From: an uncultured Solirubrobacteraceae bacterium
GTDB taxonomy: Bacteria; Actinomycetota; Thermoleophilia; Solirubrobacterales; Solirubrobacteraceae
NCBI GenBank assembly: GCA_902806175.1
Contig: CADCVQ010000020.1
Span: 1 to 35,505 of the forward strand
Direction: 5' to 3'
DNA: 35,505 nt
Shown here: positions 1-33,930 of the stretch, in pieces
Layout: each line of letters begins with the position of its first letter
How positions within the stretch are numbered: position 1 is the stretch's first letter
Program-made: the position numbers and the translations under genes
Notes under the pieces: model-generated
What the model was told of the DNA's origin: nothing
Database searches by the model: none
Seen by the model: the letters and a program-made list of their open reading frames with translations, nothing else

Positions 1-453
1 GCCGCGGGCGTCGCTGCCGACCGCGGCGCAGCGCAGCCGCGTCCGGCGACACCCGCTCCCGCGCCAGCCGCGCCCGCGCGCCCCGCTCCCGCCGTCACGG
101 CCGTCACGCAGCAGACGCCCGCCGCCAAGACGCCGCAGCAGATCGCCGCCGAGAACCTGCAGCGCATCCGCGACAAGATCAGGGCCGCGTTCGCCAGCGC
201 ACAGACGCTCGCGGGGGCAGGCACCGAAGGGTCGATCACGACCGCGAACTCGATCGTCCAGAGCACGATCGGCCAGGTGCTGCCGTCGATCCAGCGGATC
301 CTCGCGTCCTACGGGATGAGCCTGCCGTCGGGCACGACGACGGCGCCGCCCGCCACACCGGGCGACACGACCGTCACGAACGTCCTGGCACCGGCGCAGT
401 CGCTGCTCAGCGGACTGAACACGATGCTGCAGAACCTGTTCGGCCGGCTCTAG
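1..453 (+). CDS. C-terminal part of an Ala/Pro-rich, probably exported protein
   Basis: The reading frame is open from the first base and ends at TAG 451-453, giving 150 residues; the start lies outside the window. The first 35 or so residues are an Ala/Pro/Arg linker. A helical, Gln/Ser/Ala-rich part follows (about residues 45-115), then a second short Thr/Pro linker and an amphipathic tail ending in NLFGRL. No domain family is recognised. The linker-plus-helix build and the Leu/Gly tail resemble the next gene, which is clearly secreted, so a cell-surface or secreted role is inferred only. It lies 168 bp upstream of the next gene, and that gap carries the riboswitch, so the two are probably separate transcription units. 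Confidence 0.7.
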   Translation, partial: AAGVAADRGAAQPRPATPAPAPAAPARPAPAVTAVTQQTPAAKTPQQIAAENLQRIRDKIRAAFASAQTLAGAGTEGSITTANSIVQSTIGQVLPSIQRILASYGMSLPSGTTTAPPATPGDTTVTNVLAPAQSLLSGLNTMLQNLFGRL

Positions 454-547
454 AGAGAGCGTCAACGCGCCAACCGCGAACGGATTCGCAAGTATCGCAT
501 CACAAGCAGGGGCCGCCGCCGTGTTAGGGGCAGCCAGATCACGAAAA

Positions 548-617
548 GGCAAACCCGTCGCGAGACGGGCGCGCAAAACCAGGGGCCTCACGCAGGCCGC
601 CCAGTTGCCGAAGGAGG
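548..617 (+). ncRNA. Cyclic-di-GMP-I (GEMM-I) riboswitch aptamer and ribosome site
   Basis: The RNA fits the GEMM-I pattern. The conserved 5' strand GGCAAAC (548-554) pairs through GGCAA with UUGCC (605-609) as the closing stem. A hairpin CCCGUC/GACGGG (554-569) is capped by the GNRA tetraloop GCGA (560-563). Next comes GCGCAAAACCA (571-581), close to the family consensus ACGCAAAGCCA. The second hairpin is GGCCU/AGGCC (584-598). The closing stem is followed directly by the ribosome site AAGGAGG (611-617), 4 nt before ATG 622. GEMM-I aptamers bind cyclic-di-GMP. The close junction of stem and ribosome site suggests control of translation initiation, which is inference. Divergence from consensus in the second half leaves some doubt. 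Confidence 0.75.
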
Positions 618-621
618 CACA

Positions 622-1689
622 ATGTCTCATCCCCGTCGTATCGTCGCCGCGCTGGCGACCCTTGCCGTGCTCGTCGCGGTTCCCGCCACAGCATCGGCGG
701 CCGAGTCCTCGGCCAAGGTCGCGTCGAGCACCAACGTCCAGGTGCACGTCGACAAGGCCACGAAGGCCGTCAAGCGCATGAAGCGCTACGCCCGCCTCGG
801 CAACGGCAAGGCCGTCGCCAAGCAGCTGAAGATCGCTCGCTCGCAGTCGGCCGCGGCATCGCGGATGGCGCGCCAGATGGCCGTCTCGGCCGATGCCGGC
901 ACGCAGAGCGTCGCCGCCGCCCAGGCACTGACGCTCGCCGGCACGCAGTACGACCAGCTCGTCGAGTCGATCACCGCGATCGTCGACCAGATCACCGGTC
1001 AGGTTCAGGCACTTGTCGCCAACTCGATCGCGCCGAGCCTCGCCGGCAAGCAGAAGATCGTCGAGGTCCTCACGCAGCTGCTCGACCAGGTGCCTGCAGA
1101 GGCCAAGCCCGTCATCGCCTCGATCATCGCGGCGCTGTCCGTCGGCGACGCCGACGAGGTCGTCAACCTCGACCAGGCGCTTGACTCGGGCAGCCTGCCG
1201 AGCAGCATCGCCGGCATCGTCAGCTCGGCGCTCTCGATGGCGACGGGCATCATGGACCAGGCCTTCGGGATCGTGAAGTCGATCGTCCCGCTGCTGCCGG
1301 CCGCCGTTCAGGCCCCGCTCATGCAGATCCTGAACATGGTCAGCTCGACCGTCGGCACGATCGTCCCGGCCGTGCTGAGCACGGTCACCGGCCTGATCGA
1401 CACGATCCTCGGCTCGCTGCCGTTCGTCGGTGGCACGTCGTCCTCGACCGGCGGCATGTTCGGTCTGGGCGGCCTGCTGGACGGCATCCTCGGCGGCGCC
1501 TCGGGCGACCTGCCCGGCGGCATCGGCGGCATGCTCGACGGTCTGCTCGGCGGCCTGTTCGGCGGCGGCTCGACCGGTGGCAGCACGACGCCGGCCGGCG
1601 GCATCACCGGCATCATCAGCAGCGTCACGGGCCTGATCGGGAACCTTCTGGGTGGCCTCTTCGGCGGCCAGGCGGCTCCCGCCACATGA
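622..1689 (+). CDS. Secreted Gly-rich surface protein, probably riboswitch-controlled
   Basis: 355 residues with a clear Sec signal peptide: Arg at 5-6, a hydrophobic core, and ATASA before cleavage near residue 27. The mature part starts with a Lys/Ala-rich helical stretch (about 30-110) and continues as long amphipathic Ala/Val/Leu/Ile helices (110-260). It ends in a Gly-rich tail (about 265-350) of repeated GGLLDG- and GGLFGG-like units. No catalytic motif is seen. ATG 622 is preceded by AAGGAGG at 611-617. The Gly-rich amphipathic tail suggests a matrix, coat or adhesive function, but this is inference and no family is recognised. The last 65 bp overlap the end of the convergent acetyltransferase gene. 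Confidence 0.85.
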   Translation: MSHPRRIVAALATLAVLVAVPATASAAESSAKVASSTNVQVHVDKATKAVKRMKRYARLGNGKAVAKQLKIARSQSAAASRMARQMAVSADAGTQSVAAAQALTLAGTQYDQLVESITAIVDQITGQVQALVANSIAPSLAGKQKIVEVLTQLLDQVPAEAKPVIASIIAALSVGDADEVVNLDQALDSGSLPSSIAGIVSSALSMATGIMDQAFGIVKSIVPLLPAAVQAPLMQILNMVSSTVGTIVPAVLSTVTGLIDTILGSLPFVGGTSSSTGGMFGLGGLLDGILGGASGDLPGGIGGMLDGLLGGLFGGGSTGGSTTPAGGITGIISSVTGLIGNLLGGLFGGQAAPAT

Positions 1690-32070: not shown

Positions 32071-33930
32071 CTAGTGGGCCGGACGCGGCGCGACGACGAC
32101 CTCCGCCGCCGGGCGCGGCGGCGAGAACAGGTACCCCTGGCCGTGGCGGCAGCCGAGCTGCTCGAGCAGCCGGTGCTGGCGCGGATTCTCGATGCCCTCG
32201 GCCACCACCTGCAGCCCGAGGCTGTCGGCGAGCCCCAGGATCACCCTGACGAAGGCGACGTCGCGGGGATCGGCCTCCAGCGTCTCGACGAACGACCGGT
32301 CGATCTTCACCTGATCGATCGGAAAGCGCTTGAGGTAGCCGAGCGCGGAGTAGCCCGTTCCGAAGTCGTCGAGCGAGATGCGCACCCCGAGCTCGCGGAT
32401 CGACTGCAGGTTGCGCACCTGCACGGCGGCGCCCTCGATCAGGACGCCCTCCGTGAGCTCCAGCACGAGCGCGGAGGCGGGCAGGCCGTGCTCGTCCAGG
32501 ATGGACGCGACGACCTTCGCGAGGTTCGGGACTGCGAGCTGCAGCGGAGCGACGTTCACGGACATCGTCAGCTCGGCGCCGTCGCGACGCCAGTGCGCGA
32601 GCTGCGCGCAGGCGCTGCGCAGCACCCAGTCGCCGATCCGCGCGATGTCGCCGGTGCGCTCCGCTGCGGGTATGAAGACGGCAGGCGACACCGCGCCGAG
32701 CTGTGGGCTGGTCCAGCGCGCCAGGGCCTCAAAGCCGGTCGGCACGCCGCTCTGGAGGTCGACGATCGGCTGGTAGGCGACGTGCATCTCGCCGCGGCTG
32801 ATGGCGCCGGTCAGCGCCGCTCGCAGCCGAAGCTGCGCCGCGGCGACGTCGCCCGTCTCCTCGCAGGTGGTTCGCACCGCGCCGGCGCTCGACTTGGCGC
32901 GGCGCATGGCGGCGTCGGCGGCCGTGAGCAGATCGCTGCCCGAAGTGCCGTGCCCGGCGACCGCCAGGCCGACGCTGGCGCTCACGCCGACGCGCTGGCC
33001 GTCGATCTCGAACGCGACCCTGGAGACCGTGTCGCGCAGCCGCCCGGCGAAGCGCATCGCCGCGGACTCGTCGTCCATCTCGCCGCCCACGACAGCGAAG
33101 ACGTCGCCGCCCAGGCGCCCGACCAGGTCGCGCCCGCGCACTGCCGCGGACAGCCGCTCGCCGACCTCCTTGAGCACGAGGTCGGCCGCCGCCGCACCGT
33201 AGGCGTCGTTGACGAGCCTGAAGTCGTCCAACCCGATGCAGATCGCGCCGACCGAGACCGGCTGCTGGCCCCCGACCGCGTGCAGCAGCTGGTCGGCCTG
33301 CGCGCACAGCAGCGCGCGGTTGGCGAGGCCGGTCAGGCGATCGTGCAGGCCCTGCTCGGCCTGTGACCTGCGCAGCTCCAGATGAGCGGTGACCGCAGCC
33401 GCCAGGTCACCGAGGATCCTGACATCGCGCTCGTTCCACTCCCGCGGCACGCCGTCGATCGCGCAGAACGCGCCGACCGCGTGGCCGTCGGAGAGCACGA
33501 GCGGCATCCCGGCGTAGGCGATCACGCCGAGATCGCGGATCGCGAGATTGTCGGCGACAAGGGGATGCTCGCGCGCGTCGGAGATGATCAGCGGCTGGCG
33601 GGAAGCTACGGCGTGCTGGCAGAAGGAGTGGCTCAGCGGCGTTTGCCGAAAGTCGGCGAGATCGCCTTCCAGGCCGTGCTGGCTCTTGAAGAACTGGCGG
33701 TCGGCATCGACGAGCGAGACGAGCGAGACCGGCACGCCCAGCAGGTCGGTCGCGAGGCGCGTGTAGCGATCGAGGTCCTGCTCGGCCTCCGTGTCGAGCA
33801 GACCGAGATCATGTAGCGCGGCCAGACGCGCGCCGTCGCGCACCGCGTCGTACGGCGTGGCGGGCTCGCGAGCTCGGCGCTCTTCACCGATCGCGGTTGG
33901 GTGTGGGAGTGTGCGCGTCTTCTGATCCAT
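32071..33930 (-). CDS. GAF-GGDEF-EAL protein, probable cyclic-di-GMP phosphodiesterase
   Basis: 619 residues. GAF sensor domain (about 28-190, with FFKSQHGL and SHSFCQHAV typical of the subtype). Degenerate GGDEF domain (about 195-345): the active-site motif reads GGDVF, and the usual N-D-x-x-G-H-x-x-G-D reads NDAYGAAAAD, so diguanylate cyclase activity should be lost. The EAL domain (about 375-610) keeps FEALARW, LELTEGVL, ISLDDFGTGYSAL and QVKIDRSFV, so cyclic-di-GMP hydrolysis to pGpG is expected. No membrane segment. It may lower cyclic-di-GMP in response to the GAF ligand and so act on the riboswitch near 548. ATG 33930 is used. Confidence 0.93.
   Translation of the reverse strand: MDQKTRTLPHPTAIGEERRAREPATPYDAVRDGARLAALHDLGLLDTEAEQDLDRYTRLATDLLGVPVSLVSLVDADRQFFKSQHGLEGDLADFRQTPLSHSFCQHAVASRQPLIISDAREHPLVADNLAIRDLGVIAYAGMPLVLSDGHAVGAFCAIDGVPREWNERDVRILGDLAAAVTAHLELRRSQAEQGLHDRLTGLANRALLCAQADQLLHAVGGQQPVSVGAICIGLDDFRLVNDAYGAAAADLVLKEVGERLSAAVRGRDLVGRLGGDVFAVVGGEMDDESAAMRFAGRLRDTVSRVAFEIDGQRVGVSASVGLAVAGHGTSGSDLLTAADAAMRRAKSSAGAVRTTCEETGDVAAAQLRLRAALTGAISRGEMHVAYQPIVDLQSGVPTGFEALARWTSPQLGAVSPAVFIPAAERTGDIARIGDWVLRSACAQLAHWRRDGAELTMSVNVAPLQLAVPNLAKVVASILDEHGLPASALVLELTEGVLIEGAAVQVRNLQSIRELGVRISLDDFGTGYSALGYLKRFPIDQVKIDRSFVETLEADPRDVAFVRVILGLADSLGLQVVAEGIENPRQHRLLEQLGCRHGQGYLFSPPRPAAEVVVAPRPAH

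What the first reader, a model, noticed from the sequence alone, without database searches (positions are those of the whole stretch)
548..624. Cyclic-di-GMP-I riboswitch in front of a Gly-rich secreted protein
The 5' leader of the 622-1689 gene carries all the marks of a GEMM-I aptamer: GGCAAAC, a GNRA-capped hairpin, a near-consensus GCGCAAAACCA, a second hairpin, and a UUGCC closing strand ending 1 nt before AAGGAGG. GEMM-I aptamers bind cyclic-di-GMP. The ORF behind it has no known family, so it would be a new type of cyclic-di-GMP-controlled surface protein. The same window encodes a cyclic-di-GMP phosphodiesterase.
Basis: partly seen in the sequence, partly recalled or inferred. Interest (0 to 1): 0.75.

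Follow-up and report, generated by a model that had tools for sequence, protein, structure and literature searches.

The report
Cyclic-di-GMP riboswitch before secreted protein
An RNA sensor of a well-known kind, for the bacterial signal molecule cyclic-di-GMP, sits directly in front of a gene for an uncharacterised, probably exported protein, and close relatives of the bacterium carry the same pairing many times over.

Summary
Window 538-613 (+) is a class-I cyclic-di-GMP aptamer: RF03167 62.4 bits (cut-off 59), RF01051 57.5 bits (cut-off 35). Rfam's top label, "c-di-GMP-I-GGC", probably misleads: at the contact position where that consensus has G, this RNA has A (A575), as ordinary c-di-GMP-I does. 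The own genome has six copies; 37 of 61 genomes (own plus relatives) hold 92, with strong covariation. The gene behind it (622-1689) encodes a probably secreted protein without Pfam or NCBIfam family; 20 of 31 homologous places in those genomes lie directly behind such an aptamer. The window gene at 1-453 is the tail of an ECF-like sigma factor that accompanies this family (14 of 21 loci; 3 of 49 other and 0 of 21 pilin loci). The likely mechanism is control of translation, since the aptamer abuts the Shine-Dalgarno sequence; the sign is unresolved. In passing: type IV pilin genes of the same regulon combine the riboswitch with a WhiG-type promoter, a type reported to be governed by c-di-GMP through RsiG. 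Verdict: a real, ordinary riboswitch with an interesting regulon.

The parts
538..613 (+). c-di-GMP-I aptamer (whole model)
   Evidence: RF03167 539-613, 62.4 bits; RF01051 538-612, 57.5 bits
549..574 (+). P2 arm: G549-C574, C550-G573, hairpin 554-559/564-569 with GNRA loop GCGA 560-563
   Evidence: alignment; 99-100% of cells paired in 65 aptamers
577..606 (+). P3 arm: 577-579/604-606, 582-584/600-602, 585-587/595-597; C580 and A603 do not pair
   Evidence: 8 of 12 pairs with changes on both sides across relatives
548..548 (+). ligand contact equivalent to G20
   Evidence: alignment position; G in 89 of 92 aptamers
575..575 (+). ligand contact equivalent to A47 (A here; G in the RF03167 consensus)
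   Evidence: A in 92 of 92 after correcting by eye 7 pattern artefacts
608..608 (+). ligand contact equivalent to C92
   Evidence: C in 90 of 92
611..617 (+). Shine-Dalgarno AAGGAGG, overlapping the last nucleotides of the aptamer model
   Evidence: start codon 8-16 nt after the aptamer end in 21 of 21 family leaders read
622..1689 (+). P0001, 355-aa protein with signal-peptide-like N-terminus and Gly-rich C-terminal part
497..526 (+). promoter-like element GCATCAC (497-503) ... GTGTTA (521-526)
   Evidence: pattern in 5 of 22 family leaders (all of the own genus), 0 of 22 pilin, 0 of 49 other (pattern chosen after looking)
1..453 (+). C-terminal tail of an ECF-like sigma factor (5' end beyond the contig)
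   Evidence: 46% identity over 151 aa to L163:1158-2819, which has Sigma70_r2 and r4 domains
32071..33930 (-). GAF-GGDEF-EAL protein; EAL motif present, GGDEF motif reads GGDVF
   Evidence: motif reading is by eye

Best explanation
It is a cis-acting class-I cyclic-di-GMP riboswitch in the leader of the P0001 mRNA. Transcription probably starts a few nucleotides upstream of 538, from a promoter served by the ECF-like sigma factor encoded just upstream (inferred). When cyclic-di-GMP binds, P2 and P3 pack side by side and the junction that holds C608-C609 closes (established behaviour of the family, not shown here). Because the aptamer ends inside AAGGAGG, its folding changes how easily a ribosome reaches the start site, so translation is the step controlled (inferred from anatomy; no + strand terminator-like site was found). 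I lean weakly, about 55 to 45, towards 'bound = off'. The product is a probably exported, helical protein of a family found mainly in this order.
For: Covariance scores; six copies in the genome; covariation in 65 aptamers; contact nucleotides kept (contacts G20, A47, C92 from passages of PMC4744006). The gene pairing is conserved: 20 of 31 P0001-homologous places in 61 genomes lie directly behind an aptamer (searches compared by coordinates); start codon 8-16 nt after the aptamer in 21 of 21 leaders. ECF-like sigma neighbour at 14 of 21 family loci, 3 of 49 other loci, 0 of 21 pilin loci. No terminator-like site on the + strand at 400-800. 5' flanks pair with the 3' end and SD slightly better than shuffled flanks: -8.56 against -7.22, sd 0.50. 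The genome has 19 GGDEF and 8 EAL places over the cut-offs.
Against: No binding or expression data. The energy model puts the forced aptamer 7.1 kcal/mol above the free ensemble of the window leader and shows no change of SD exposure (0.20 to 0.21); across 21 leaders exposure rises on average from 0.33 to 0.39 (15 of 21 up), which points towards 'on', against my lean. The 5' flank/SD pairing is not specific to its own leader (swapped flanks -8.76) and is weak in the window copy (-6.2). 11 of 31 family members have no aptamer directly upstream, including a 60%-identical copy in the same genome.
Confidence: 0.7

Rival explanations
1. The aptamer belongs to the Rfam variant c-di-GMP-I-GGC and senses a different or modified ligand.
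For: RF03167 is the best-scoring family for the window copy and for own C99.
Against: Where the RF03167 consensus has G (after CGC) this RNA and all 92 aptamers of the order counted have A (7 corrected by eye); the other four own copies score best with RF01051. The higher score probably reflects overall likeness, not the changed contact.
Confidence: 0.06
2. The riboswitch works but controls transcription (early termination or Rho) rather than translation.
For: Characterised class-I switches act on transcription in C. difficile and Bacillus (passages of PMC11477304, and PMC7423583).
Against: No + strand terminator-like site at 400-800; the SD follows the aptamer without room for a terminator.
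Confidence: 0.2
3. A relic: the aptamer is inherited with a duplicated gene and no longer switches.
For: One paralogue (C124) has lost the aptamer and keeps only a piece resembling its 3' end; the C63 copy is a broken gene with a weak aptamer (39.4 bits).
Against: The window copy scores best of the six and keeps all contacts and the layout; the closest homologues in five other genomes of the genus (G001, G002, G003, G005, G006) keep both aptamer and gene.
Confidence: 0.04

Closest known systems
c-di-GMP-I (GEMM-I) riboswitch, Rfam RF01051
   Same: P2/P3 architecture, GNRA loop, interhelical C-G pair, G20/A47/C92 equivalents, score above cut-off
   Different: Very short P1 reaching into the SD; the gene controlled has no described family
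c-di-GMP-I-GGC, Rfam RF03167
   Same: Best score for the window copy, full-length match
   Different: Has A where the model's consensus has G at the A47-equivalent contact
Vibrio cholerae Vc1 upstream of gbpA (PMC4744006, passages read)
   Same: Class-I aptamer before a secreted protein gene; no terminator or anti-SD recognised there either
   Different: There the aptamer lies in the first 111 nt of a 225-nt leader; here it abuts the SD
Bacillus Bc2/cbpA (PMC7423583, passages read)
   Same: Class-I switch before a surface-protein gene
   Different: Reported as a transcriptional on-switch; that protein is predicted to be wall-anchored and binds collagen

Membership tests
c-di-GMP-I riboswitch (RF01051) | Covariance score at or above the gathering score | tested here: met
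   57.5 bits against 35
c-di-GMP-I riboswitch (RF01051) | P2 and P3 helices with covariation | tested here: met
   11 of 21 pairs change on both sides, 0 of 500 shuffles as high
c-di-GMP-I riboswitch (RF01051) | Ligand contacts G20, A47, C92 | tested here: met
   G548, A575, C608; kept in 89, 92 and 90 of 92 (A47 count corrected by eye for 7 artefacts)
c-di-GMP-I riboswitch (RF01051) | Interhelical C-G pair and GNRA loop | tested here: met
   C572-G599 invariant in 65 of 65; loop GCGA
c-di-GMP-I riboswitch (RF01051) | Binds cyclic-di-GMP | not testable with these tools
   needs in-line probing or calorimetry
c-di-GMP-I-GGC (RF03167) | Score at or above the gathering score | tested here: met
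   62.4 against 59; of the other five own copies one is over the cut-off
c-di-GMP-I-GGC (RF03167) | G at the A47-equivalent position (that the name GGC stands for the contacts G20/G47/C92 is my inference from recall) | tested here: not met
   A575; consensus G shown
cGAMP-sensing GEMM-I variants | A at the G20-equivalent position | tested here: not met
   G548 here; A only in L119 and L155 of 92

The most novel reading that the evidence does not exclude
In this order (Solirubrobacterales) cyclic-di-GMP is read at two successive levels of the same genes. Pilin genes carry a WhiG-type promoter, of the type held back by RsiG with cyclic-di-GMP, and then a class-I riboswitch in the transcript. The window's family carries a second arrangement: an ECF-like sigma factor with a long C-terminal tail, the riboswitch and the secreted protein form one module in which another signal sets transcription and cyclic-di-GMP sets translation.
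Probability: 0.4. Interest if true: 0.7.

Novelty: new member of a known kind. Interest (0 to 1): 0.45.

Why it matters
It gives an uncharacterised, probably secreted protein family a testable regulatory input and shows that an early-branching actinobacterial order uses a sizeable cyclic-di-GMP riboswitch regulon (pilins, wall-associated and secreted proteins, an anti-sigma homologue). Combined with the published RsiG-WhiG switch it would be a natural case of one second messenger acting on both transcription and translation of the same genes.

Tried and rejected
Structure of P0001: AlphaFold from two sequences gave mean pLDDT 39.5, all helix; no fold search was run on it. Deriving the sign of the switch from folding energies: no clear answer. 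GGC membership: rejected on the contact nucleotide. Sigma-70 promoter scan at 400-800: none found. Plasmid search for P0001: no match. Viral contigs: no exact match to an aptamer core pattern. Genome-contig search with the family: one locus, a Solirubrobacteraceae MAG. The promoter patterns CT[TG]AC-N-GTT (8 of 22 family leaders, shuffle mean 0.07; 2 of 49 other, 0 of 22 pilin) and GCATCAC-N-GT..TA were chosen after looking at the leaders, so their counts are exploratory; so is the CGTCCA count. Literature: the searches listed no paper on cyclic-di-GMP riboswitches in Solirubrobacterales or Thermoleophilia; most subscription papers are not in this library, and the two papers I recalled as sources of the GGC class could not be opened.

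Rows dropped before counts: the weak G001:C10:16756 match (only) is left out of the 92 but sits among the 49 'other'. A8 holds 65 of the 92 aptamers; I left out 27, mostly those with long P3 loops or weak scores. The broken C63 copy is left out of the 21 leaders. One search scanned 89 of the 90 first genes (the C63 one was dropped). G006:C4:57818 was not scanned.

Full report
Identity. The parent model RF01051 scores 57.5, cut-off 35, at 538-612.

Which class. RF03167 differs from RF01051 at the base after CGC in the junction between P2 and P3: consensus G against A. I place this at the A47 position of the Vc2 aptamer (numbering recalled); G20, A47 and C92 are named as the ligand contacts in PMC4744006 (passages). 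The window has G548, A575 and C608. In 92 aptamers of the order the A is kept in all (the seven G counted are a pattern artefact of the sequence CGCGCAAA, corrected by eye), G20 is G in 89 and C92 is C in 90. I conclude that it is an ordinary cyclic-di-GMP-I aptamer that resembles the GGC model in other columns.

Reality of the structure. On 65 of the 92 aptamers, 94.2% of pair cells are standard, 11 of 21 pairs change on both sides, and none of 500 shuffles reaches the covariation score. Folding energy alone says little: z -0.50, and the forced aptamer lies 7.1 kcal/mol above the free ensemble in the window leader.

Distribution. Own genome (window = contig C20): six places. Own plus 60 relatives: 92 places in 37 of 61 genomes with RF01051; RF03167 finds these and one weak one more. 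Phylum sample: 129 of 296 genomes, 127 over the cut-off. One relative is named: a Solirubrobacteraceae MAG; the order name used here rests on it.

The regulon. First genes behind the aptamers, 89 proteins scanned with Pfam (gene choice by my own script, so approximate; counts at E 0.01): prepilin methylation motif in 22, CAP domain 4, ice-binding-like 3, Ig-like and beta-helix 3 each, subtilase 2, RsiG 2, cellulase-like 2, flagellin 1. In the own genome: P0001, a paralogue (C148), a broken paralogue (C63), a protein with an SLT-like domain below its cut-off (C99), an RsiG homologue (C17) and a WxL-domain protein (C119).

The P0001 family. 31 homologous places in 16 of 61 genomes; by coordinates 20 of them lie directly behind an aptamer and 11 do not. 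A profile built without L089 recovers L089 at 7.6e-62 and, outside the family loci, only one protein at E 0.0017. Across the phylum the family is rare: 8 of 296 genomes, several of them weak, and the loci G140, G041 and G246 have no riboswitch match. The protein has a signal-peptide-like start, a predicted helical body (low-confidence model) and a Gly-rich end. Export is inferred; attachment to the surface is not shown.

The neighbour. The window gene at 1-453 is the end of an ECF-like sigma factor gene: 46% identity over 151 aa to the gene in the same place in the named relative, which has Sigma70 regions 2 and 4. That protein matches at 14 of 21 P0001-family loci, 3 of 49 other aptamer loci and 0 of 21 pilin loci (most stretches hold about 1 kb upstream and 3.5 kb downstream). 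Family leaders carry recurrent promoter-like elements (exploratory). I infer that this sigma factor drives P0001.

Mechanism. The SD begins inside the last aptamer bases in the window, and 8-16 nt separate aptamer end and start codon in 21 of 21 leaders. With no + strand terminator-like site the simplest reading is control of translation. The sign is open: crowding of the SD by a closed aptamer and weak pairing of the 5' flank with the SD suggest off; SD exposure in constrained folds rises slightly in 15 of 21 leaders, which suggests on; known class-I switches do both (PMC11477304 passages, off; PMC7423583 passages, on).

A wider pattern. In the pilin group 12 of 22 leaders have TAAA-N-GCCGATAA with at most 2 mismatches of 12 (shuffle mean 0.13, maximum 1), against 0 of 22 in the P0001 group and 4 of 49 others. 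PMC8325347 (abstract and passages) reports -35 TAAA and -10 GCCGATAA as the WhiG promoter, and type IV pilus genes of Rubrobacter as its targets under RsiG and cyclic-di-GMP; the word riboswitch does not occur in its main text. RsiG homologues over the cut-off occur in 54 of 61 genomes and FliA/WhiG-type sigma factors over the cut-off in 56 of 61. Two readings of the same messenger on one gene are thus likely but unproven; the window gene itself shows no WhiG-type promoter.

Verdict. A genuine, canonical cyclic-di-GMP-I riboswitch; new member of a known kind. The surroundings, not the RNA, carry the interest.

Noticed in passing
L091, L096, L098, L102, L120, L134, L142 and others (pilin leaders), 24-36 nt before the aptamer: WhiG-type promoter TAAA-N15/16-GCCGATAA upstream of riboswitch-controlled type IV pilin genes: 12 of 22 with at most 2 mismatches of 12, shuffle mean 0.13.
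   Followed up: partly
L144, L142, L105, L134, L014 and others, about 55-85 nt before the aptamer: A palindrome-like upstream element ending in CGTCCA (L144: CTAGGACGAACGTCCA): CGTCCA or its complement in the last 120 nt of 15 of 22 pilin and 24 of 49 other leaders, 1 of 22 P0001-family (shuffle means 1.5, 4.4, 2.0). Regulator unknown.
   Followed up: no
L157:1105-1788: Clp_N domain fused to an RsiG domain, directly behind a weak cyclic-di-GMP-I aptamer; the own-genome counterpart (L014, C17) is a short RsiG homologue whose N-terminus looks, by eye, like a Clp_N remnant.
   Followed up: partly
L161 (own C124), before 1001: A 60%-identical paralogue of P0001 has no aptamer match but keeps a stretch like the aptamer's 3' end before its SD.
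   Followed up: partly
L016:5755-6200 (own C63): Broken P0001 paralogue with a still recognisable aptamer (39.4 bits).
   Followed up: partly
L119:1001-1075, L155:3501-3577: Two aptamers with A at the G20 position, the change known from cGAMP-sensing variants.
   Followed up: no
L164-L193: All 30 RsiG homologues read in the relatives have His, not Gln, at the fourth position of the cyclic-di-GMP motif.
   Followed up: no
L098, L104, L134 and other pilin leaders: Pilin aptamers have a longer P1 (GGUG/CACC) and a possible outer helix GCCAG...CUGGC; own flanks pair better than swapped ones (-12.89 against -11.52, sd 0.47).
   Followed up: partly
L112: Two neighbouring pilin genes, each behind an identical aptamer (G024).
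   Followed up: no
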